From contig JAFTWA010000035.1 of the NCBI GenBank assembly GCA_017465565.1, forward strand, positions 1-64,000: DNA of 64,000 nucleotides, given 5' to 3'. This document shows, one piece after another, positions 4,887 to 56,473 of this stretch (within the stretch, counting starts at the first letter, position 1; every line of letters begins with the position of its first letter). The notes beneath the pieces are model-generated. The model searched no databases and was not told where the DNA came from. It worked only from the letters and a program-made list of their open reading frames with translations. The DNA is from Tyzzerella sp. GTDB taxonomy: Bacteria; Bacillota; Clostridia; Lachnospirales; Lachnospiraceae. Position numbers and translations under genes: made by a program.

Positions 4887-5963
4887 ATGAAATACGAATA
4901 TTGGTTTGCAAATATAAAAGGGATTACAAATAGCCGCAAGATAGAAATCCGAAAAAAATTTCAATCGGCGGAGGAATTATTTAATATAGAAGAAAAAGAA
5001 TTAGAAAGGCTTGAAGTCGTTGAGAGAGAGCGGCAAATCATTCTGGAAGGCACAAAACAGTGGAACGCAGAGCGTGAATATCAGAAGGTAATGGAGAAAG
5101 GGGTAAGATGTGTCTCTATATGGGACGCAGAGTATCCTAAGAAATTAAAGGAAATTCATACTCCGCCTTATATGCTGTATGTAAAAGGAAGGCTTCCTGA
5201 CGAGTCGAAAAAGACAGCTGCCATTGTGGGTGCGAGAGAATGTAGTCCATATGGAGAAGTGATGGCAAGAGCATTTGCAGAGCGTCTTGCGGGAGCAGGA
5301 GTGCAGATTGTCAGTGGAATGGCCCGGGGTGTTGACAGTGCAGGACAACGAGGTGCACTCAGGGCAGGAGGCACTAGCTTCGGTGTGCTCGGCTGCGGTG
5401 TGGATGTGTGTTACCCGCGGGAGGAGATAGGCCTCTATATGGAGCTTCAGGAAAGAGGCGGGGTGCTCTCGGAATTTCCAATTAATACGTGTCCGCTCAA
5501 ACAGAATTTCCCTGCCAGAAACCGTATTATTAGTGGGCTCTCAGATGTGATTCTGGTGATGGAGGCAAAAGAAAAGAGTGGCTCTCTTATTACCGCAGAC
5601 ATGGCTCTGGAGCAGGGGAAAGACGTATATGCGCTGCCAGGTCCAATTAACAGCAGTCTGAGTAAAGGATGTAATGGACTGATAAAACAGGGCGCTGGAA
5701 TACTTTTATCTCCAGAAGAATTACTGGAAGAACTTGGGATTTTCGCAGAAAATTTACACAAAAAAGATTCTCAAGAAAAAATATTACTTGAAACCATGGA
5801 AAATATAGTGTATAGTTGTCTCGATTTCAAACCTCAAAATTTGAGTGAACTGATTCGCAAGACAAAGTTATCTGTGCCGGAATTATTGGACGCGTTAGTT
5901 CGTTTAGAATTATTAGGGGTAATTAAAGAGATTTCAAAAAATTATTATGTGAAAGTAAAATAG
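4887..5963 (+). CDS. dprA: DNA-processing protein DprA (Smf)
   Basis: A 358-residue protein. The Rossmann core spans residues about 100-300 with motifs VGARECSPYGE, SGMARGVDSAGQ, VLGCGVDVCYP and KSGSLITADMALEQG. The C-terminal 60 residues form a winged-helix domain. DprA loads RecA on incoming single-stranded DNA in transformation. It starts in the GGAGGAGATAAT context directly after comM and is followed 28 bp later by topA, the usual Firmicute order dprA-topA-codY. Confidence 0.93.
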   Translation: MKYEYWFANIKGITNSRKIEIRKKFQSAEELFNIEEKELERLEVVERERQIILEGTKQWNAEREYQKVMEKGVRCVSIWDAEYPKKLKEIHTPPYMLYVKGRLPDESKKTAAIVGARECSPYGEVMARAFAERLAGAGVQIVSGMARGVDSAGQRGALRAGGTSFGVLGCGVDVCYPREEIGLYMELQERGGVLSEFPINTCPLKQNFPARNRIISGLSDVILVMEAKEKSGSLITADMALEQGKDVYALPGPINSSLSKGCNGLIKQGAGILLSPEELLEELGIFAENLHKKDSQEKILLETMENIVYSCLDFKPQNLSELIRKTKLSVPELLDALVRLELLGVIKEISKNYYVKVK

Positions 5964-5991: not shown

Positions 5992-8013
5992 ATGGCACGC
6001 TATTTAGTAATCGTGGAATCACCTGCAAAGGTAAAGACAATCAAAAAATTTTTGGGAAACAGCTATGTAGTTATGGCCTCCAATGGCCATGTGCGTGATT
6101 TACCAAAGAGCCAGCTTGGAATCGATGTAGACCACGATTTTGAACCAAAGTACATTACAATCAGAGGAAAGGGAGATATCCTTGCAAGTTTACGAAAAGA
6201 AGTGAAAAAGGCAGATAAGATATATCTCGCAACTGACCCTGACCGTGAAGGAGAAGCAATTGCGTGGCACCTCTTAATTGCTCTGAAGCTGGAAGATAAA
6301 AAAGTATATCGAATCAGTTTTAATGAAATTACGAAAAATGCAGTAAAAGCTTCGATTAAAGATGCGAGACAGATAGATATGGATTTGGTAGATGCACAGC
6401 AGGCACGCCGTGCCCTTGACCGAGTGGTAGGCTATAGAATCAGTCCGCTTCTTTGGGCAAAGGTAAAGAGAGGCTTGAGTGCGGGACGTGTGCAGTCTGT
6501 TGCGCTCCGTATTATTGCCGACCGCGAAGAGGAAATTGATGCATTCATTCCAGAAGAATACTGGACCTTAGATGCGACTCTTCGTGTAGAAGGCGAAAAG
6601 AAGCCATTGGTTGCCAAGTTCTACGGAACAGAGGGGAACAAAATGACAGTCCGCTCTGAAGAAGAGATGAACAATATTGTAAAGGCAATCGAAAATGAAG
6701 CATACTTTGTAGATGAGGTAAAGAAAGGAGAACGCAGCAAAAAGGCGCCACTTCCATTCACAACGAGTACCCTGCAGCAGGAAGCTTCAAAGGTACTTAA
6801 CTTTGCAACACAGAAGACGATGCGGGTTGCACAGCAATTGTATGAAGGGGTGGATATCAAAGGCAGCGGTACCGTTGGTCTTATCTCATACCTTCGTACC
6901 GATTCTACCAGAGTATCAGAGGAAGCAGATGCAAATGCCAGAGCTTATATCGCAAATACCTATGGAGTCGCATATATGGCGGCGGCAGAGAAGAAAACAG
7001 ATAGCAGCAAGAAGATTCAGGATGCCCATGAGGCAATTCGCCCAACAGATGTGACAAGAACACCGGCTTCTTTGAAGGAATCCTTAAGCAGAGACCAGCT
7101 TCGTCTGTATCAGTTAATCTGGAAACGTTTTGTTGCCAGCAGAATGCAGCCAGCGAAATATGAGATAACATCTATTAAAATTGGAGCCGGAGAGTATCGC
7201 TTCACCGTATCTGCATCAAAGGTAGCATTTGAAGGCTTCCGTGCTGTCTATGTGGAATCAGATGAAGAAAAAGAAGAAAATAATGTACTTGTAAAGAGCA
7301 TTGATAAAGATTCAAGGCTTACAAAAGAACTATTGGATCCAAAACAACATTTTACACAGCCACCAGCCCATTATACAGAAGCTGCGCTTGTTAAGACGTT
7401 AGAAGAGCTTGGGATTGGCCGTCCAAGTACTTATGCGCCAACCATTTCAACCATTATTGCAAGAAGATATGTGGCAAAAGAGAGTAAGAATCTATACATG
7501 ACAGAGCTTGGGGAAGCGGTGAATAATATTATGAAGCAATCGTTCCCGAGTATTGTAGATGTAAACTTCACGGCATACATGGAAGGACTCTTGGACTTGG
7601 TTGAAGATGGAAAGGTAGAATGGAAGACCGTCATCAGCAATTTCTATCCTGATTTGGCAGAAGCTGTCCGCATTGCAGAAGAGGAACAGGAAAAGATTAA
7701 GATTCAGGATGAAGTGACAGAGGAAATCTGTGAGGTGTGTGGACGAAATATGGTTATTAAGTATGGCCCACACGGTCGTTTCCTGGCATGCCCTGGTTTC
7801 CCAGAGTGTAAGAACACAAAGCCATATTTGGAAAAAATAGGTGTAAAATGTCCTCTTTGTGGTAAAGAAGTTGTTCTTCGCAAAACGAAAAAGGGAAGAA
7901 AATATTATGGTTGCGAAGATAATCCAACTTGTGAATTTATGTCATGGCAAAAACCAACAGAAAAATCAGTGAAAAAAACTGAAAATTCGGATATAAAAGT
8001 TGAAAATTCATAA
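5992..8013 (+). CDS. topA: DNA topoisomerase I (type IA)
   Basis: A 673-residue enzyme that relaxes negative supercoils. It has a Toprim domain (IVESPAKVKTIKKFLG; acidic motif TDPDREGEAIAWH), the active-site tyrosine motif SYLRTDSTR near residue 300, and two C-terminal zinc ribbons (CEVCGRNM...CPGFPEC and CPLCGKEV...CEDNPTC). Length is normal for Firmicutes. Ribosome site TGGAGGAAA precedes the ATG. The last 15 residues are a lysine/serine-rich tail. Confidence 0.96.
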   Translation: MARYLVIVESPAKVKTIKKFLGNSYVVMASNGHVRDLPKSQLGIDVDHDFEPKYITIRGKGDILASLRKEVKKADKIYLATDPDREGEAIAWHLLIALKLEDKKVYRISFNEITKNAVKASIKDARQIDMDLVDAQQARRALDRVVGYRISPLLWAKVKRGLSAGRVQSVALRIIADREEEIDAFIPEEYWTLDATLRVEGEKKPLVAKFYGTEGNKMTVRSEEEMNNIVKAIENEAYFVDEVKKGERSKKAPLPFTTSTLQQEASKVLNFATQKTMRVAQQLYEGVDIKGSGTVGLISYLRTDSTRVSEEADANARAYIANTYGVAYMAAAEKKTDSSKKIQDAHEAIRPTDVTRTPASLKESLSRDQLRLYQLIWKRFVASRMQPAKYEITSIKIGAGEYRFTVSASKVAFEGFRAVYVESDEEKEENNVLVKSIDKDSRLTKELLDPKQHFTQPPAHYTEAALVKTLEELGIGRPSTYAPTISTIIARRYVAKESKNLYMTELGEAVNNIMKQSFPSIVDVNFTAYMEGLLDLVEDGKVEWKTVISNFYPDLAEAVRIAEEEQEKIKIQDEVTEEICEVCGRNMVIKYGPHGRFLACPGFPECKNTKPYLEKIGVKCPLCGKEVVLRKTKKGRKYYGCEDNPTCEFMSWQKPTEKSVKKTENSDIKVENS

Positions 8014-17215: not shown

Positions 17216-17773
17216 ATGATTTCAGCAGGCGATTTTAGAAATGGCGTAACTCTTGAAATTGAAGGAAACATCTATCAAATTCTTGAATTCCAACATGTAA
17301 AACCAGGTAAAGGTGCAGCGTTCGTTAGAACAAAATTAAAAAACATCATCAATGGTGGTATTCAGGAAAAAACTTTCAGACCAACTGAAAAATTCCCTAA
17401 AGCTCATATTGAAAGAAAAGATATGCAGTACTTATATTCAGATGGTGAATTATATCACTTTATGGATATTGAAACATATGATCAGATCGCATTAAATGAA
17501 GATGCAATCGGTGATTCATTAAAATTTGTAAAAGAAAACGAAATGGTTAAAATCTGTTCACACAAAGGAAATGTATTTGCAGTGGAACCACCATTATTCG
17601 TAGAACTTGCTATCATTGACACAGAACCAGGTTTCAAAGGTGATACGGCAACAGGTGCTACAAAACCAGCAACAGTTGAAACTGGAGCAGTTGTATATGT
17701 ACCATTATTTGTAGAAATGGGAGATGTTCTTAAGATTGATACACGTACAGGTGAATACTTATCACGTGTATAA
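17216..17773 (+). CDS. efp: Elongation factor P
   Basis: 185 residues, full-length EF-P with three beta-barrel domains. The loop lysine that may be modified lies in [11 protein letters not shown] near residue 32. It relieves ribosome stalling at polyproline. The last codons TCA CGT GTA TAA are part of the prophage attachment core, so the prophage insertion leaves the protein unchanged but replaces everything downstream, including the original terminator. Confidence 0.96.
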
Positions 17774-17914: not shown

Positions 17915-18961
17915 TTATTCAATTAAATTAATTTGCTCTAAGAGTTCTGAAATATCTTTGTGTGTATACACCTTATCTGTAATATCTTTGCTTTCATGGC
18001 CCATGATTCTCTTGATACAGATTTTCTTCAAACCTGCAGTATCAGCAAGAGAAGCAAATGTGTGTCGTGTATCATGTGGTAAATGATTCATTTCTAATTG
18101 CTCCATAATTTGAGTCCAGCGTTTTTGCTGATAGTTGGAATAAGTAAAAGGCTTTCCGACTTGATTAGCAAGAAGAGTAGGACAGTTAAGTGCAATACTA
18201 TTGTTTAGGTGTTTTTCGACTAAAGGAAGTATTTTGTCGTGAATAGGAACAGTTCTTAGACTCGATTTGTTTTTTGCTCTGACAATCTTCATTGTTTTAG
18301 CAGAAATATCTACATTACAGCATTGCATTTCTAATAATTCACCAACACGCATTCCTGAATAAATCAAAATTAGTATAGTATCAACATACTCCATTCGCTC
18401 CAGAGCATCCCACAGTGCGTTTATTTCGTCTTTTGAGAACACAGTCCGATTAATTACTGTCTCTTTCGCTCCGATGTCTAAAAACGGCGTATAGCTCTTT
18501 TCAACAAGGTCGTTTTCAAGAGCAAACTCAAATACCTGGTTATAAAAGGAACGTAAAGCCTTTTTAGTCTGATATCCAGCAGGACAGTTGTCGATTGTGT
18601 TTTGCATATGGACTGCTTTTATTTCGCGTACAGGCATGTCTTTGATTTCTACGGCATGTTTAAAGGCTGCTCTGTAAGATACAGCCGATTGTTCAGAAAT
18701 CTTTTTATACTTCTTATCGGACCACATTTTATAAACTTCTTCGAAAGTAATACCTTTTTGTTTTAGATCGTATGGATTGGTATTGTATTCAGCCAATGCT
18801 TTCATAGCATCTTTTCTAGTTGCATAATAACCAAGTACGATTCTGTTTAATTTTACTTCCCCATTTTCGACAGTTCTTCCGTCTGTAAGTCTTACCATAA
18901 ATGGTTTACGTCTGTTTCCAGATAATTTTGTGATACTTCCGTATCCGTTTGGCATTTTCAT
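17915..18961 (-). CDS. int: Prophage tyrosine recombinase (integrase)
   Basis: 348 residues from ATG 18961, which has AAAGGAGAA 6 nt upstream; a longer frame to 19054 lacks a ribosome site. N-terminal arm-binding domain (MPNGYGSITKLSGNRRKPF), SAM-like core-binding domain, and C-terminal catalytic domain with Arg in YSGMRVGELLEM, His-x-x-Arg in LPHDTRHTFASL, GH in IMGHESKDITD and the nucleophile Tyr in KVYTHKD. It integrates the phage at the efp 3' end. Transcribed toward attL. Confidence 0.95.
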   Translation of the reverse strand: MKMPNGYGSITKLSGNRRKPFMVRLTDGRTVENGEVKLNRIVLGYYATRKDAMKALAEYNTNPYDLKQKGITFEEVYKMWSDKKYKKISEQSAVSYRAAFKHAVEIKDMPVREIKAVHMQNTIDNCPAGYQTKKALRSFYNQVFEFALENDLVEKSYTPFLDIGAKETVINRTVFSKDEINALWDALERMEYVDTILILIYSGMRVGELLEMQCCNVDISAKTMKIVRAKNKSSLRTVPIHDKILPLVEKHLNNSIALNCPTLLANQVGKPFTYSNYQQKRWTQIMEQLEMNHLPHDTRHTFASLADTAGLKKICIKRIMGHESKDITDKVYTHKDISELLEQINLIE

Positions 18962-19026
18962 ATCATCTTCTCCTTTCATATTCGTAAAAATGAGTATAAA
19001 AATAACAGCTAGGAGCAATTCTGCCC

Positions 19027-19055
19027 TTGCAAGCTGTTTCCGAAGATGATACAAT
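19027..19055 (+). promoter_or_regulatory. Promoter of a putative small RNA
   Basis: TTGCAA (19027-19032), 17-nt spacer, TACAAT (19050-19055), on the strand opposite to int and the neighbouring genes, directly upstream of two stable hairpins. Confidence 0.6.
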
Positions 19056-19138: not shown

Positions 19139-20557
19139 TTATTCGTTTTCAGAGTCGTCTTCTAAAATATAATCAGTTGAGTAAATTTCATCATTAGACA
19201 ACGATTGTCTAAATTCTTCTGCCAACATTGTTTTGTTGAATTCTGCAGTAGGTTCAATTTCGTTAACCAGAGTTTCGAGCTCGTCAATAGTAGTACGGAA
19301 AAATTCCTTTCGTAAGTTGACTTTATTTACACGTTTATCATTCAAAATTGTATGTAATTTATTTTCCAAACCGACAGCATCATCAGAGAAAATGAAACTA
19401 TGTACATCAAATCTAAATGGAACAGAAGCATCGCCCAACTCATTGACACGGTCTTGAGGATTGAGACGTCGAGTCATACCGATTTTAAATACATTTTCTC
19501 CAAAAGAACCGAGGTTGCTAATAATGTAAACATTACCTGCTTTACCATTCGCTAATTTTGCAATTTCCTCTTTCTTAACAACAACTTCTGCTAATTGCGA
19601 TTGTAACTCAAGAATTCTTGCGTTCAATTTTTCGAGTTCCGCATCTTTTGCCGATACAAGTTGCTCTTTTAATTTTTCGATTTGAGTATTGAATTTATTT
19701 TCTTCTTGCTCGACTTTCTTACGTTCAGCCTCCAAAGCCTTTCTCTCTTCGGCTTCTTGTTTCATTTGTTCTTTAATAGCAAGTTGCTCCTGACGCGCTT
19801 GCTCCTTCTTAACGTAGTAGTTATATTCGATTTTTACAGCGTTAATAAACAAGTACTCAATTTCACCGATAAACTTGGTAAGTGTACCAACAATACTTTG
19901 GTTTCCATCACCAGCAATTTTTAAATACTTTTGAGTAACTGTTTTTACATCTTCAATAGATTTATCTAGTTTTTCATACTTTAGATTGTAAAGAATATTC
20001 TGTAATTCAGCTCTTAATGCGATAACCATTAACTTATATATAGCCTGATTTGCTTTTGTGGTGTATCTGGCAGCATATTTATCAAGTACAGCATTGATTT
20101 GCTTGTCATTATCGCGATATGCTTTTCGCAGGTCTTTCATGTCCATACAATGTAATTTTAAAATAATTGAAGGACTGATTTCTTCCAATTCCATTAGTTG
20201 TTCAGGAGTGATTTTGAAAGAGCGTTGTTCTGGTGAATAGTAAAAGTATTCTGCCAATGCATAATCAATGGCCCTGACAAGTTCTTTGGAACGCGATAAT
20301 TTGTTTGTTTGAGTTTTTACTTGCTTGATAAGTTTTTCTAGTTCGTGGTTTTTTGTATCAATGCATTGAAGTAGTTCTTGTTCTTTGATACTCATAGCAT
20401 TAGTTACTTCTTTAAGCGCATAATAATCAAAAGCACCAAGTTCATCCAATTTCTGTTTTAAATTTTGAATGTCAACACGTAGATTGGCATTTTCAGCGTT
20501 AAGGTAGGCGATTTCTGATTTAAATTGATTTATTTTAAAGATATCTCCTAATCCCAT
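19139..20557 (-). CDS. DUF4041 / T5orf172 (GIY-YIG-like) domain protein
   Basis: 472 residues. Long coiled coils at about 10-65 and 250-330, a DUF4041-type helical region between, and a C-terminal T5orf172/MUG113 domain (GNVYIISNLGSFGENVFKIGM, TRRLNPQDRVNELGDASVPF, EFFRTT), a GIY-YIG nuclease relative. Such genes commonly sit between integrase and repressor in Firmicute prophages and are expressed by lysogens, which suggests a role in superinfection exclusion or host interaction; this is not proven. AGAGGG ribosome site. Confidence 0.75.
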   Translation of the reverse strand: MGLGDIFKINQFKSEIAYLNAENANLRVDIQNLKQKLDELGAFDYYALKEVTNAMSIKEQELLQCIDTKNHELEKLIKQVKTQTNKLSRSKELVRAIDYALAEYFYYSPEQRSFKITPEQLMELEEISPSIILKLHCMDMKDLRKAYRDNDKQINAVLDKYAARYTTKANQAIYKLMVIALRAELQNILYNLKYEKLDKSIEDVKTVTQKYLKIAGDGNQSIVGTLTKFIGEIEYLFINAVKIEYNYYVKKEQARQEQLAIKEQMKQEAEERKALEAERKKVEQEENKFNTQIEKLKEQLVSAKDAELEKLNARILELQSQLAEVVVKKEEIAKLANGKAGNVYIISNLGSFGENVFKIGMTRRLNPQDRVNELGDASVPFRFDVHSFIFSDDAVGLENKLHTILNDKRVNKVNLRKEFFRTTIDELETLVNEIEPTAEFNKTMLAEEFRQSLSNDEIYSTDYILEDDSENE

Positions 20558-30263: not shown

Positions 30264-32771
30264 ATGGAATATTTAGAATTCTTAAAAACAAAGATTGAAA
30301 TAGCCACAGATAGTGGTTTTGTAGTTGATAGAGAGAAAATTAACAAAGCATTAAAACCACACCAGAAAGATGCTGTAGCGTGGGCGTTAAAAGGTGGAAG
30401 GAGAGCATTATTCGAGTCGTTCGGCCTTGGTAAGACGGTACAGGAATTAGAGTTCTGCAAGCAAGCCATAGACTACCAAGGCGGAAAAGCGCTTATTGTT
30501 CTTCCGCTAGGAGTAAAACAGGAATTTACACAGGACGCTGTGAATGTTCTTGGATATGAGAAACCTAGATACGTGCGCAATATGGCAGAGGTGTTGGAAG
30601 CAAAAGAAGAGATTCTTTTGACAAACTATGAAAGAGTACGTGACGGGGATATTGACCCAACGTATTTTACGGCAACATCGCTAGATGAAGCGAGCGTGCT
30701 TCGTAGTTTTGGAAGTAAGACATATCAGACTTTCATGGAAAAGTTTAAAGGTGTTCCTTATAAGTTGGTTGCAACAGCAACACCATCACCAAACAGATAT
30801 AAGGAGCTTATTCATTACGCAGGGTATTTAGAGGTGATGGACACAGGACAAGCTCTTACAAGATTCTTCCAAAGGGATTCTACTAAGGCTAACAACTTAA
30901 CACTTTATCCAAACATGGAAGATGAGTTCTGGTTATGGGTCAGTAGCTGGGCGTTATTCATTACAAAGCCTTCAGATCTGAATCCTGCATACTCTGATGA
31001 AGGATACGCGCTTCCACCATTGAAGGTAAATTGGCATGAATTACCGATATCTTACGGTGATGCGGAAGAGAAGAATGGACAGTTGGCATTGTTTAATGAA
31101 GCAGCTGCAGGGTTAAAAGAAGCAGCACAAGTAAAACGTGAGAGTATCAATCAACGCGTAGCAAAGATGAAAGAAATTGTGGACGCTTCTCAAAACGACC
31201 ATTTTGTATTATGGCATGACCTGGAAAGTGAACGACATGCGATTAAATCTGCGTTACCTGAGACAGTAGAGATATATGGCTCACAGGATTATGACGTTCG
31301 AGAGCAGAGAGTTATTGATTTCTCGCAAGGTAAGACAAGACTATTCGCTACTAAGAAATCATTATCTGGTTCAGGGTGTAATTTCCAAAGATATTGCCAC
31401 AGAGAGATATTCTTAGGTATCGATTACGAGTTTAATGATTTCATCCAAGCAATTCACAGATGTTACCGCTTCTTGCAGACAGAAGAGGTTGTGATTGACA
31501 TTATCTACATGGAAAATGAACGCGAGATTAAAAACGTACTCATTGACAAGTGGAAAAATCATAAACACATGGTGGATAAGATGGTTGAGATTGTGAAGAA
31601 ATATGGATTATCGTCTGCAGGCATGGAAAAACAATTAGAACGAAAGATGGGAGTAGAGACAGTGAAAGTAGAGGGTAAAAGATTTACGGCCGTACATGAT
31701 GATTGTGTGGAAGAAACAAGAAGGATGGCAGACAACAGCATTGATTTGATACACACCTCCATTCCATTCGGGAATCATTATGAATATTCAGCTAATTATA
31801 ACGACTTCGGACATAACGAAGATACTGATAGATTTTTTGAACAAATGAATTTTTTGACGCCAGAGCTTCTTAGAGTTCTTAAGCCTGGTAGAGTTGCAGC
31901 AATACACGTAAAAGACCGAGTGTTATTTGGGAACGTAACAGGCACAGGAATGCCAACAGTCGAACCATTCCATGCGCTTTGCATCAGCCACTACATGAAG
32001 CATGGTTTTCAGTATTTCGGAATGATTACCGTTGTAACAGACGTAGTAAGAGAAAATAACCAGACATATCGGCTTGGTTGGTCTGAACAATGTAAAGATG
32101 GTTCAAAGATGGGCGTGGGGTGTCCAGAATATATTCTTCTCTTCAGGAAATTACCTACGGACCGTTCTACTGCCTATGCAGATGTTCCAGTAGCAAAGAG
32201 CAAGGAAGAATATACAAGAGCACAATGGCAGATTGACGCGCATGGATATTGGAGAAGCTCAGGAGATAAACTTGTCAGCAAAGAGGAATTGAAAGAAATC
32301 TCTGTTGATAATCTGCAAGCGGTATACAGAAAGTACAGTCGCGAGAATGTATATGACTACAAAGAACATGTAGAGCTTGCAAAATCACTTGATGAGGATG
32401 GAAAACTCCCTGCAACATTCATGGTTGTTGCGCCTGGTAGCTGGAATGACTTGGAAGTATGGGATGATATTAACCGAATGCGTACGCTTAACACAAGTCA
32501 AGCACGAAGAAGACTACAGATGCATGTTTGTCCTTTGCAGATTGATATTGTGGAGAGAATTATCAATCGATATTCAAACGAGGGCGATTTAGTTCTGGAT
32601 CCTTTTGGTGGACTTATGACGGTTCCGTTAACGGCTGTAAAAATGAAAAGAAGGGGTTATGGAATTGAACTAAATCCAGACTATTTCCGCGATGGAGTTG
32701 GGTACCTGAAGGATGCTGAGGATGAGTTAGAGACTCCAACATTATTTGATTTTCTTGGAGGTGCAAACTAA
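30264..32771 (+). CDS. SNF2-type helicase fused to DNA methyltransferase
   Basis: 835 residues. N-terminal superfamily 2 helicase (KPHQKDAVAWALKGG, Walker A SFGLGKT, motif II LDEAS, ATATPSPNRY, and a C-terminal helicase half with QAIHRCYRF). From about residue 460 an N6/N4-methyltransferase: motif IV-like IHTSIPFGNHYEYS and motif I LVLDPFGGLMTVPLTAVK near residue 780, then GYGIELN. The catalytic tetrapeptide reads S-I-P-F, not S/D-P-P-Y/F. Probably protects phage DNA or remodels it. The start has only a weak ribosome site. Confidence 0.88.
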   Translation: MEYLEFLKTKIEIATDSGFVVDREKINKALKPHQKDAVAWALKGGRRALFESFGLGKTVQELEFCKQAIDYQGGKALIVLPLGVKQEFTQDAVNVLGYEKPRYVRNMAEVLEAKEEILLTNYERVRDGDIDPTYFTATSLDEASVLRSFGSKTYQTFMEKFKGVPYKLVATATPSPNRYKELIHYAGYLEVMDTGQALTRFFQRDSTKANNLTLYPNMEDEFWLWVSSWALFITKPSDLNPAYSDEGYALPPLKVNWHELPISYGDAEEKNGQLALFNEAAAGLKEAAQVKRESINQRVAKMKEIVDASQNDHFVLWHDLESERHAIKSALPETVEIYGSQDYDVREQRVIDFSQGKTRLFATKKSLSGSGCNFQRYCHREIFLGIDYEFNDFIQAIHRCYRFLQTEEVVIDIIYMENEREIKNVLIDKWKNHKHMVDKMVEIVKKYGLSSAGMEKQLERKMGVETVKVEGKRFTAVHDDCVEETRRMADNSIDLIHTSIPFGNHYEYSANYNDFGHNEDTDRFFEQMNFLTPELLRVLKPGRVAAIHVKDRVLFGNVTGTGMPTVEPFHALCISHYMKHGFQYFGMITVVTDVVRENNQTYRLGWSEQCKDGSKMGVGCPEYILLFRKLPTDRSTAYADVPVAKSKEEYTRAQWQIDAHGYWRSSGDKLVSKEELKEISVDNLQAVYRKYSRENVYDYKEHVELAKSLDEDGKLPATFMVVAPGSWNDLEVWDDINRMRTLNTSQARRRLQMHVCPLQIDIVERIINRYSNEGDLVLDPFGGLMTVPLTAVKMKRRGYGIELNPDYFRDGVGYLKDAEDELETPTLFDFLGGAN

Positions 32772-32920: not shown

Positions 32921-33802
32921 GTGGACTTAGAACAAAAAGCAATAGAGCGAATAAGAACAGCTTCAGAAATGAGTCTCCACCATTATGGGAAACCTCTAGT
33001 TTGTACATACAGTGGGGGGAAGGATTCTGATGTAATGTTAGAACTCTTCAAGCGTTCAGGGATTCCATTTGAAGTACATAACAGTCATACAACAGCAGAT
33101 GCGCCACAGACGGTATATCACATTCGAGATACTTTCTATAAATTAGAACTTCAAGGAATTAAATGCACGATTGATTATCACATTCAGCCAGACGGCTCCA
33201 GAATTACAATGTGGAATTTAATTCCAAGAAAACTGATGCCACCGACTAGGCTAGTAAGATATTGTTGTTCTGAATTAAAAGAAACTGGCTGTCATAACAG
33301 AATGATTGCTACTGGTATTAGATGGGATGAGAGCACAAAACGTAAAAGCAGAGATAGTTTCGAAGTAATAGGAAAAACGAAAAAAAAGGGAATACGCATA
33401 TCAGATGAGAAGATGCTTCTGACTGATAATAACGATACTAGAAAACTTTTCGAACAATGTCAGTTAAAGGCAAAGACCGTAGTGAATCCCGTTATTGATT
33501 GGAAGAATTCTGATATCTGGGAGTATATCGAATCAGAGCGTATCTGTACGAACTGTCTTTACAAAATGGGTTATGACAGAGTCGGGTGTATTGGTTGTCC
33601 TGTGGCGAGTAAAGCAAGATGGAAAGAATTCGCTGATTTTCCAAAGTATAAACAGATGTATATACATGCCTTTGATCGAATGATTGAAGTTAGGAAGGCG
33701 AGAGGTAAAGAAACAACGTGGAAGAACGGAGAGGAAGTATTTTTTTATTGGATGGAAGATGAAAACATTCCAGGACAAATGACATTAGAGGATTTTTTAT
33801 AG
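32921..33802 (+). CDS. PAPS reductase/DndC-like PP-loop protein
   Basis: 293 residues, GTG start. PP-loop ATP-pyrophosphatase motif YSGGKDSDVMLELF near residue 30, substrate-site segment VRYCCSELKE and a cysteine-rich end (ICTNCLYKM, CIGCPVASK). Phage members of this family lack proven sulphate reduction and are candidates for nucleotide or DNA modification (DndC-like). Directly downstream of the helicase-methyltransferase, so a joint role in DNA modification is possible. Confidence 0.82.
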   Translation: MDLEQKAIERIRTASEMSLHHYGKPLVCTYSGGKDSDVMLELFKRSGIPFEVHNSHTTADAPQTVYHIRDTFYKLELQGIKCTIDYHIQPDGSRITMWNLIPRKLMPPTRLVRYCCSELKETGCHNRMIATGIRWDESTKRKSRDSFEVIGKTKKKGIRISDEKMLLTDNNDTRKLFEQCQLKAKTVVNPVIDWKNSDIWEYIESERICTNCLYKMGYDRVGCIGCPVASKARWKEFADFPKYKQMYIHAFDRMIEVRKARGKETTWKNGEEVFFYWMEDENIPGQMTLEDFL

Positions 33803-53941: not shown

Positions 53942-54601
53942 ATGGAAAAAATATACAAACGTATTAATTGGCAAAATGTTCCGAGTACGGAAACTCCTTT
54001 GTCAGCAGAAAACTTGAATAAGATGGACAAAGGAATTGAAGATTTGGATAATCGCATGATAAACGATATTCCAGTCATGGACACGCAAAACAATGTAGTG
54101 ACATTCGAAAGCGCAGATGCAGTGGATACAGAAGAAGCTCCCCTTGCATGGAGCGATGTAGAGGTTTTGAAAACAGGAGAGAAACATTCTTCTATATTTG
54201 CAAAGATATCACAGATGTTCAAGAATATTCGATATCTGTACAAGACAGTTGCTGAATTAAATGGCAAATTGCCAGATTATATCGTTGAGCAAGGCACGAG
54301 TGGTATTTGGACATATCGAAAGTGGAATAGTGGCATTGTTGAGTTATTTGGGTATACAACAGGTAATTCAACTTATTATTCCACAAATAGTACTTGGGGA
54401 TATTCTCATTTAGCACAAATTAATTTACCTTTTACGCTAACTTCTTGTAGATATGTAAATGCTTCTGTACGATTTGGTAGTGGCACAGCAACTGTGATGA
54501 GAATAAATGAAAGTGTAACTGCACCAATAATTTATTTTGACGCCAATCTTGATAGCGACACATATCGCATAAACATAGAGGTTAAAGGTGCATGGAAATA
54601 A
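53942..54601 (+). CDS. Tail fibre / receptor-binding protein with exchangeable C-terminus (expressed cassette A)
   Basis: 219 residues. Constant N-terminus about 1-107 (RINWQNVPSTETPLSAENLN, NKMDKGIEDLDNRM, then a coiled segment ending TVAELNGK). The crossover codons TTA AAT GGC (LNG) are at 54257-54265. The variable tip follows (YIVEQGTSGIWTYRKWNSGI ... RINIEVKGAWK). Two silent alternative tips starting with the same LNG codons lie downstream. Likely decides host range. Confidence 0.85.
   Translation: MEKIYKRINWQNVPSTETPLSAENLNKMDKGIEDLDNRMINDIPVMDTQNNVVTFESADAVDTEEAPLAWSDVEVLKTGEKHSSIFAKISQMFKNIRYLYKTVAELNGKLPDYIVEQGTSGIWTYRKWNSGIVELFGYTTGNSTYYSTNSTWGYSHLAQINLPFTLTSCRYVNASVRFGSGTATVMRINESVTAPIIYFDANLDSDTYRINIEVKGAWK
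54255..54268. repeat. Crossover core in the expressed tail-fibre gene
   Basis: AATTAAATGGCAAA, shared with the right silent-cassette site in inverted orientation (AATTAAATGGCAAA) and, except for one base at its start and one at its end, with the left site. It lies in frame over the LNG codons. Confidence 0.75.
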
Positions 54602-54606
54602 ATTAA

Positions 54607-54657
54607 TTACTTAATCACCCAGCCTGTTCCAGAGTTCCAAAGCGCATCCGCATAGAT
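54607..54657 (-). pseudogene. Remnant D: last codons of another tail-fibre tip (minus strand)
   Basis: On the minus strand reads IYADALWNSGTGWVIK then stop, a typical tail-fibre C-terminal end. It points towards cassette A, only 5 bp from A's stop. Upstream it runs into the recombinase relic and a stop codon, so only the end survives. Confidence 0.55.
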
Positions 54658-54811
54658 TCAGACGCACGTCTCTTACAAATGCACTTAATCGTGGGATGCC
54701 ACTACAAGAAGCGATGCTGCAGGTCACGAGAAGCCAGAAACCACAATGCGTTACTGCAACGTGGACCAGGAAGGTGTGAAATATCACCACAAGAAATTTT
54801 TAAGCGCATAA
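54642..54811 (+). pseudogene. Relic of a tyrosine recombinase C-terminus (candidate shufflon recombinase)
   Basis: Frame 1 reads AHPHRFRRTSLTNALNRGMP then LQEAML; after a frame change of one base the DNA reads GHEKPETTMRYCNVDQEGVK then YHHKKFLSA and stop. This is the catalytic end (HxxR, GH and nucleophile Tyr) of a XerD-like recombinase. The first two thirds are missing and it is frameshifted, so it cannot be active. It is unrelated in sequence to the integrase at the left end. Confidence 0.8.
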
Positions 54812-54833
54812 CAAGTAAGTAAATAGGTATTTT

Positions 54834-54861
54834 ACATCTGGCCGAGTGGTCAGGTGTTTTT
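54834..54861 (+). terminator. Intrinsic terminator after the tail-fibre/recombinase region
   Basis: ACATCTGGCC-GAGT-GGTCAGGTGT, ten pairs, followed by TTTTT. Confidence 0.85.
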
Positions 54862-54899
54862 GTTATGCAGAAATACAACTGAATAAAGAAAATTATTAA

Positions 54900-54926
54900 A
54901 AAGAGAAAATCTTAGTTAAATGGCAA
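54900..54926. repeat. Left inverted repeat of the silent-cassette segment
   Basis: AAAGAGAAAATCTTA-G-TTAAATGGCAA. It matches the right repeat (55562-55588, opposite orientation) at 26 of 27 bases. An in-frame TAG precedes the LNG codons. Confidence 0.85.
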
Positions 54927-55206
54927 TAAAATAAATAAATCTGATTTTATCATGTTTGATTATGTAGAATGGACGTCAATAGTCGGGGATATCCTCGCAA
55001 TTGCACAAGGAATTGTGAGTCCAATTACTTTTTTTATAACAGGTCAGGCAACAACAAATCTCCCAGACTATACTTATAATTATTCTACAGGAATGATATT
55101 TCGAAGAACATCAGACCAAATATTTATTTTGATTTTTGGACGTGATGGGTCTATCACAACGAATTCTTATAATGCTGGAACGTGGTCTGGGTGGAAAATT
55201 AGATAA
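54916..55206 (+). other. Silent tail-fibre C-terminal cassette B
   Basis: 96 codons open from the LNG crossover codons with no start signal: LNGNKINKSDFIMFDYVEWT, then a tip-like sequence ending TTNSYNAGTWSGWKIR, a usual phage fibre ending. A stop codon (TAG) sits directly before LNG, so it can be expressed only after being joined to the N-terminus of the fibre gene. An internal ATG (54952) has no ribosome site. Its stop abuts that of cassette C. Confidence 0.75.
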
Positions 55207-55572
55207 CTATCTAATTCTAATAGCGGTCAAATTACCACGAATGTTATAACTAGCCGAATCGTATGCATAGGAGTTTAAATATATAGTGTTATCTTCCTCA
55301 GTTTCTAGAAAACCAACCGTGCAAACACCGCCACCACCGCTACCTGTCGAACGTACTTGAGGTAAATGGTAACTTCCCGTTGGTTCTTTTGCACATTGCA
55401 AATGTGCAGTTGTGCTAGCGTTGGAACTAATGGATATATCTATATATCCTACAATAATATAAGTACCTGGTGAAATTGATACTTCTGTTATGTTTTGCTG
55501 AGTACCGTAGACAGCTTCTACACTTCCAGATGCTCTAATAGTGGTTCCAATATTATTTGTTTTGCCATTTAA
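55207..55572 (-). other. Silent tail-fibre C-terminal cassette C (minus strand)
   Basis: 121 codons open from LNGKTNNIGTTIRASGSVEA through PGTYIIVGYIDISISSNAS, a GGGG tip (STGSGGGGVCTVGF) and the ending NIRGNLTAIRIR. An in-frame TAA precedes LNG and no start signal exists. Inversion between its site and the site in the fibre gene would fuse it in frame to the N-terminus. It converges exactly on cassette B (stops at 55206 and 55207). Confidence 0.78.
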
Positions 55573-55588
55573 TTAAGATTTTCTCTTT
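55562..55588. repeat. Right inverted repeat of the silent-cassette segment
   Basis: Reverse complement is AAAGAGAAAATCTTA-A-TTAAATGGCAA; pairs with 54900-54926. Confidence 0.85.
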
Positions 55589-56152: not shown

Positions 56153-56473
56153 ATGAATTTTGAAAAAGCGTTACAACACGTTAAATTGGGCTACAGAGTA
56201 GCAAGAAAAGGATGGAACGGTAAGGGAATGTGCATTTTCCTAACACCAGGTTCTGACGTGCCTTATACCAAGTTAAAACAACACAATCAAGATGCATTGG
56301 TTTGCGCAAGAAGTGATTTGCTTCCAAGAAACGAGGATGGTTTCTGTGATGAAAACACAATAATCCATATCAATGCTCACATTGATATGATTGCAGCGGA
56401 TGGCTCTATTGTTATTGGATGGCTCGCATCTCAAACAGATATGTTAGCAGAAGATTGGGAAATTGTACAATAG
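56153..56473 (+). CDS. DUF2829 protein, Tad2-like anti-Thoeris candidate
   Basis: 106 residues. MNFEKALQHVKLGYRVARKG then WNGKGMCIFL, HINAHIDMIAADGSIVIGWL and DMLAEDWEIVQ are the DUF2829 pattern. Characterised DUF2829 phage proteins (Tad2) bind the cyclic ADP-ribose-type signal of Thoeris immunity and so block abortive defence. Good length match to single-domain Tad2. It sits between lysis genes, GGGAGAAGATAAC site. Ligand specificity cannot be judged from sequence. Confidence 0.82.
   Translation: MNFEKALQHVKLGYRVARKGWNGKGMCIFLTPGSDVPYTKLKQHNQDALVCARSDLLPRNEDGFCDENTIIHINAHIDMIAADGSIVIGWLASQTDMLAEDWEIVQ

What the first reader, a model, noticed from the sequence alone, without database searches (positions are those of the whole stretch)
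53942..55588. Shufflon-like tail-fibre diversification region with silent converging cassettes
The fibre gene has a constant N-terminus up to codons LNG. Two extra C-terminal cassettes downstream (B plus strand, C minus strand) start with the same LNG codons in the same frame, lack start signals, have a stop codon just before LNG, and converge with stop codons at adjacent bases. They are bounded by 27-bp inverted repeats (26 of 27 identical) whose core TTAAATGGCAA also occurs in the expressed gene. This is the layout of R64-type shufflons. Inversion between 54257 and 55572 would swap tip A for tip C.
Basis: partly seen in the sequence, partly recalled or inferred. Interest (0 to 1): 0.92.

Follow-up and report, generated by a model that had tools for sequence, protein, structure and literature searches.

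The report
Phage tip-switching array, switch enzyme lost
A virus sleeping in a gut bacterium carries spare tips for the fibre it uses to grip its host, laid out so that flipping DNA would swap them, but the enzyme that does the flipping survives here only as a fragment, so this copy is probably stuck while related viruses still carry an intact version.

Summary

The 300 bp between tip A and B hold the last ~57 residues, in two frames, of a tyrosine invertase (54636-54808; E 6e-24; 93% and 83% identical to an intact relative). That relative (L245) has tip1(+), tip2(-), intact invertase, tip3(+), tip4(-) and the identical site four times. The same order recurs in other phages. In one single-contig genome two prophages carry the tip3-tip4 block, 98.8% identical, in opposite orientations between collinear flanks; in two other phages one tip is silent in one and expressed in the other.

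So the window is a decayed four-tip shufflon, probably locked on tip A. No intact invertase was found in its 88.6%-complete genome; supply in trans is not excluded. Inversion in the window itself was not observed.

The parts
53942..54601 (+). tail-fibre gene; constant part 53942-54256, tip A 54257-54601
   Evidence: ORF; PHROG minor tail protein 1.3e-8 at residues 5-39 and tail fiber protein 3.6e-6 at residues 102-219
54257..54267 (+). site 1, TTAAATGGCAA, codes for the LNG at the start of tip A
   Evidence: same site four times in L245
54602..54638 (-). possible last codons of a lost tip2 converging on tip A (weak)
   Evidence: minus-strand reading ..WNSGTGWVIK*; position as tip2 in relatives; no database support
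54636..54808 (+). remnant of a tyrosine invertase: C-terminal ~57 residues in two frames, the rest absent
   Evidence: tblastn E 2e-12 with L208 enzyme and 6e-24 with L245 enzyme, 92.6% and 83.3% identity; also found in the whole-genome profile search
54809..54868 (+). DNA after the invertase remnant, still alike to the same stretch of relatives
   Evidence: window 54639-54868 is 73.7% identical to L246 6802-7031, 72.2% to L245
54900..54926 (+). left 27-bp arm with site 3 (54916-54926)
54916..55206 (+). silent tip B (tip3 position), 96 aa, stop codon just before LNG
   Evidence: no Pfam or PHROG match
55207..55572 (-). silent tip C (tip4 position), 121 aa, stop codon just before LNG
55562..55588 (-). 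right 27-bp arm with site 4 (55562-55572), inverted to the left arm at 26 of 27
17915..19054 (-). prophage integrase (not the tip invertase)
   Evidence: Phage_integrase 1.7e-22; about 22% identical to tip invertases

Best explanation
The region is a decayed four-tip shufflon of a prophage tail fibre. In the intact form (L245 and relatives) a fibre gene ends in tip1; tip2 converges on it from the other strand; then come a Xer-like tyrosine invertase, tip3 (+) and tip4 (-). All four tips begin with the same ~11-nt site, which codes for their first residues (LNG, LNS, LNT), so the enzyme can invert DNA between opposite sites and put another tip in frame behind the constant part; silent tips lack start signals. 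In the window nearly all of tip2 and the first ~267 residues of the invertase are gone and what is left of the enzyme lies in two frames. The array therefore most likely cannot switch by its own means and makes tip A only; B and C are spare tips that are still open. Shown: sites, cassettes, enzyme remnant, intact relatives with the same order and one with the same site, inverted blocks between related prophages. Inferred: that the enzyme acts on these sites, that tips bind receptors, that the tip2 stub is real, that the window array is locked.
For: Invertase remnant at the position of the enzyme in relatives. L245 with the identical site x4, intact enzyme and stops before the two outer silent tips. 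Same order in L208/L231, L234, L244, L249, L251, L286; one exact 11-mer starting at least four open frames on both strands in 6 of 33 invertase loci and 0 of 120 unrelated viral stretches, at least three in 12 of 33 and 4 of 120. Inverted tip3-tip4 block in L343/L344 and inverted tip1-tip2 block in L340/L341. Same tip silent in L246 and expressed in L247. No intact family member in the window's assembly: best 88 bits against 343-506 bits for the strongest full-length members elsewhere.
Against: B and C are still open over 96 and 121 codons, so loss is recent or the tips are still used. The assembly is 88.6% complete and is one of 62 contigs' worth of a draft; contig C20 ends inside a cassette behind TTAAATAGCAA, so an enzyme could lie in unassembled DNA. 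The deletion junction rests on one assembly. The tip2 stub is weak. Seven of 20 other genome regions in a crude search gave three words or more but only four showed four tips at canonical distances, one of them the same sequence as L286. Enzyme-site correlation is moderate (rho 0.42, 36 of 5000 permutations, two sites out of register).
Confidence: 0.8

Rival explanations
1. The array is still active: an invertase of the same family supplied in trans by another prophage in the cell, or another recombinase, inverts B-C and A-C.
For: B, C and the sites are intact. A second prophage piece in the same assembly has a near-identical site (TTAAATAGCAA) and a cassette 64% alike to tip A over 42 aa, and its contig ends there. 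Two-tip loci without a nearby invertase recur. In print, an inverted phage locus without its own recombinase has been explained in this way (PMC6109161, passages).
Against: No intact family member in the assembly. The contig assembles through A-B-C without a break. Of four host genomes with two-tip loci, one has a member-like protein (181 bits) and three only Xer-like ones (121-136 bits).
Confidence: 0.15
2. B and C are separate small genes, not tips.
For: B has an in-frame ATG at 54952; B and C match no Pfam or PHROG family.
Against: No Shine-Dalgarno-like sequence before that ATG (read); a stop directly before LNG in both; the 27-bp repeat includes upstream DNA; relatives keep the same order and show inversions.
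Confidence: 0.03
3. Assembly artefact: a normal four-tip array was collapsed into a false deletion.
For: The genome is a draft in 62 contigs, and related fibre contigs often break here: 6 of 40 end within 200 bp after the pre-tip domain.
Against: The junction lies inside the enzyme gene, not at a site, and the remnant has a second lesion (two frames).
Confidence: 0.07

Closest known systems
Rin shufflon of Bifidobacterium prophages (Bb423phi1 and relatives; PMC6109161, passages)
   Same: prophage receptor-binding gene with constant N-terminus and alternative C-termini, 11-bp sites, tyrosine recombinase, inversions seen between genomes
   Different: enzyme at the end of the array, not between two converging pairs; site TTCCCTAACCC; tips described as tandem genes; enzyme in the window is a remnant. 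Sequence kinship of the enzymes was not tested
Recombinase-less inverted locus of bifidophages 689b-1 and Bb423phi2 (PMC6109161, passages)
   Same: alternative 3' ends beside each other and no recombinase beside the locus
   Different: 8-bp site CAGGGTTA; no enzyme remnant mentioned in the passages read; inversion was seen there, not in the window
R64 plasmid shufflon (Rci, pilV; recalled)
   Same: several C-terminal segments with short repeats, inverted by a tyrosine recombinase
   Different: acts on a pilus tip of a plasmid; sites and enzyme family not compared here
Mu Gin, P1 Cin and p15B Min tail-fibre inversion (Min in PMC6109161 passages; rest recalled)
   Same: tail-fibre ends switched by inversion
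   Different: serine recombinases; the window and its relatives have a tyrosine recombinase

Membership tests
Four-tip phage shufflon (family described here) | fibre gene with tip1(+), tip2(-), invertase(+), tip3(+), tip4(-) in this order | tested here: inconclusive
   tip1, tip3, tip4 and the enzyme remnant are in order; tip2 only as a weak stub
Four-tip phage shufflon (family described here) | one ~11-nt site in frame at every tip start | tested here: met
   3 of 3 sites TTAAATGGCAA, identical to L245
Four-tip phage shufflon (family described here) | intact tyrosine invertase of the A2 family beside the tips | tested here: not met
   only the C-terminal ~57 residues in two frames; so the window is a decayed derivative, not a working member
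Four-tip phage shufflon (family described here) | inversion of tip blocks | not testable with these tools
   no reads of the window's strain; shown for relatives L343/L344 and L340/L341
R64 (Rci) shufflon | Rci-family recombinase | not tested
   no Rci sequence was compared; NCBIfam best hits are XerA/XerC/XerD
R64 (Rci) shufflon | several alternative C-terminal segments bounded by short repeats | tested here: met
Rin shufflon | 11-bp rix site TTCCCTAACCC | tested here: not met
   the site here is TTAAATGGCAA; rix from passages
Serine-invertase tail-fibre switch (Gin/Cin/Min) | serine recombinase beside the fibre | tested here: not met
   no serine recombinase match on the window's contig C62; four elsewhere in the assembly
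Diversity-generating retroelement | reverse transcriptase with template and variable repeats | not tested
   no reverse-transcriptase search was run; the tips here differ as whole domains

The most novel reading that the evidence does not exclude
Tip arrays without their own invertase, of which this prophage is one, are not dead but parasitic: they keep the site and the spare tips and are switched by the invertases of other phages living in or entering the same cell, so that one phage's enzyme sets another's host range.
Probability: 0.2. Interest if true: 0.75.

Novelty: new variant of a known kind. Interest (0 to 1): 0.58.

Why it matters
It points to a frequent tail-fibre tip-switching device in phages of Lachnospiraceae: matches to its invertase at E <= 1e-40 occur in 71 of 394 genomes of the window's family, and around many of those looked at the tips stand in a fixed order with a site that codes for part of the protein. 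That would be a ready cause of host-range variation in gut prophages and of assembly breaks at fibre genes; pairs of prophages in one genome already show both orientations. The window adds the other end of the life cycle, an array whose enzyme has been lost, which makes the question whether enzyme-less arrays are locked or switched in trans directly testable.

Tried and rejected
Phage integrase as the switch enzyme: only ~22% identical to the tip invertases. Recombinases in 17 related viral records show no single enzyme shared by all (tyrosine in 9 of 17; serine in 3 of 17; records may be fragments). A serine-invertase reading of the site (likeness to hix sites, recalled) was dropped once tyrosine invertases were found beside the tips. 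Cassette C as query in viral contigs: 15 pattern matches, 0 relatives. B and C matched nothing in 355 fetched loci at E 0.01; tip A matched four loci, two of them C20. A same-genus fibre (G006) has no site of this type in 14 kb. Roseburia phage Jekyll: none of 14 inverted pairs is a strong repeat at the tip boundary.

Literature: search listings only; passages read of PMC6109161, PMC11253131 and PMC5903667. None of what I saw describes these four-tip arrays; the library holds only open-licence papers.

Full report
Observation. All stated features are in the sequence. The fibre ORF 53942-54601 has LNG at 54257; B (54916-55206, +) and C (55572-55207, -) start with LNG in the same frame, are preceded by a stop codon and converge with adjacent stops. 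TTAAATGGCAA occurs 3 times in the window against 0.10 expected (0 of 100 shuffles reach 3), and 3 of its 4 occurrences in the 3.22-Mb assembly are these. The 27-bp arms agree at 26 of 27. The region lies in a prophage with an integrase at 17915-19054, tail genes upstream and an amidase endolysin downstream; a 14-bp direct repeat at 17761 and 57456 may mark its ends (inference).

Same layout elsewhere. Viral contig L024 has a fibre and one converging silent cassette with the same core TTAAATGGCAA in a 22-nt inverted repeat at 95%. The fibre N-terminus was found in 13 of 397 genomes of the same family, the window's genome included. An alignment of the pre-tip domain (A1) gave 18 genome loci and 22 viral loci; 11 of the 18 genome titles name Lachnospiraceae, the others name Eubacterium, Clostridiales, Roseburia, Lachnoclostridium and, once, Akkermansia. 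That the window's host is of Lachnospiraceae is inferred from these family members. In 16 of these 40 loci an inverted repeat of at least 11 nt at the tip boundary is followed on the other strand by an open frame of at least 50 codons that starts with the same motif (three pairs are the same sequence, so 13 distinct). Six of the 40 contigs end within 200 bp after the matched domain. In pairs of related fibres, identity stops at the boundary (for example L214/L215, 96.9% up to 5 bases past it).

The enzyme. In L194, L208, L216 and L223 a tyrosine recombinase of one family (about 325-337 aa) lies beside the tips. Members carry the Phage_integrase domain and a SAM-like N-terminal domain (L245, L343), score best with XerA/XerC/XerD models, and the closest solved chains of the family profile are XerC-like, XerD and XerA proteins. 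A profile of the four against 43 fibre regions found the four intact genes, the window's two pieces and one further hit above threshold, in L205's integrase.

The remnant. The window's two pieces are 54636-54713 and 54722-54808 with the L208 enzyme (E 2e-12) and 54639-54719 and 54719-54808 with the L245 enzyme (92.6% over 27 and 83.3% over 30 residues, E 6e-24). They correspond to the C-terminal end; the rest of the gene is absent. DNA likeness runs on to 54868 (73.7% to L246). A short minus-strand end (..WNSGTGWVIK*) between tip A and the remnant may be what is left of tip2 (weak: only 2 of 31 tips listed there end in a similar W..GW motif).

The intact form. A scan with the enzyme alignment gave 84 viral relatives, of which the best 80 were kept. 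L245 carries TTAAATGGCAA four times, at 5228+, 5944-, 7074+ and 7739-, around an open invertase at 6001-6975; its two outer silent tips follow a stop codon. Others keep the order with their own site: L208/L231 YTAAATAGCAA, L234 ATAAATAGCAA, L244 TTAAATGATAA, L286 TTAAATGGTAA, L249 and L251 YTAAACACGG. One exact 11-mer starts at least four open frames on both strands within 4 kb in 6 of 33 invertase loci and in 0 of 120 unrelated stretches (at least three: 12 of 33 and 4 of 120). In the other invertase loci this test found two or none, partly because sites vary (L208/L231 are missed) and contigs end. Of 20 further genome regions, four show four tips at the canonical distances (L353, L355, L356, L359; L356 is the same sequence as L286); the rest gave fewer, or words unrelated to the layout. 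Enzyme identity and site likeness correlate (rho 0.42; 36 of 5000 permutations as high; 16 loci, two sites taken out of register).

Inversion in nature. In G056 (one contig, 99% complete, 8% contamination as listed) two prophages, L343 and L344, share the invertase side at 97.5% on the same strand, a 563-bp tip3-tip4 block at 98.8% in opposite orientation, and the right flank at 84.4% on the same strand; the switch lies in a shared 20-bp stretch. In G023, L340 and L341 have an 802-bp tip1-tip2 block at 93.5% inverted. In L246/L247 the tip that is silent in position 3 of one is the expressed tip of the other (135 aa, 96.3%); the left bases of each site stay with the position while the sequence after the site goes with the tip, which places the exchange within the site (inference). 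Lysis-side DNA of L194 and L195 lies inverted relative to L196 and L204.

State of the window array. No intact family member was found in the assembly: the best hit has 88 bits, against 343-506 bits for the strongest full-length members in other genomes. The assembly is 88.6% complete, and contig C20 ends inside a cassette behind the site TTAAATAGCAA, so an enzyme in unassembled DNA is possible. Of four host genomes with two-tip loci, one has a member-like protein (181 bits) and three only Xer-like ones (121-136 bits); the seven viral records searched with them, some fragments, had none. The likeliest reading is a locked array making tip A, with loss recent enough that B and C are still open.

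Literature. The nearest described system in the passages read is Rin of Bifidobacterium prophages, with a tyrosine recombinase and 11-bp sites, and in the same paper an inverted locus without its own recombinase (PMC6109161). PMC5903667 reports inversions in Clostridia and, for prophage regions around tail fibres, in four species of Proteobacteria (passages). PMC11253131 mentions a DNA invertase in one Terrisporobacter prophage (passages). Two searches naming Lachnospiraceae found no paper. In the phage record collection the L245 enzyme matched 8 records at 31-43% identity: seven unannotated phages from human faeces and Terrisporobacter phage TPELB_ph1. R64, Mu and P1 facts are recalled.

Noticed in passing
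window 56153-56473 (+): Gene between the fibre array and the endolysin with a Tad2-like (Thoeris anti-defence 2) domain, E 6.2e-24.
   Followed up: no
G000:C20:28000-37771 (L032), end of contig: A second prophage end in the same genome: endolysin, small genes, a site TTAAATAGCAA and a cassette 64% alike to tip A over 42 aa; the contig ends inside the cassette.
   Followed up: partly
L202, L203, L204, L206, L207, L210, L198: Two-tip converging pairs with sites such as YTAAACAC and no invertase of the family nearby; whether they still switch is unexplained.
   Followed up: partly
L179 5500-9320 (= L195): Lysis genes lie opposite to the fibre, between tip sites, and a broken second copy of tip A lies beside another silent tip.
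   Followed up: partly
L205 8569-12451: One phage with two fibre genes, each with its own converging silent tip and the same site.
   Followed up: no
window 19139-20557 (-): Gene with MUG113/T5orf172 domains beside the integrase.
   Followed up: no
window 32921-33802 (+): Prophage gene with a PAPS-reductase-family domain, E 9.3e-19, after a gene with DNA methylase and SNF2-related domains at 30264-32771.
   Followed up: no
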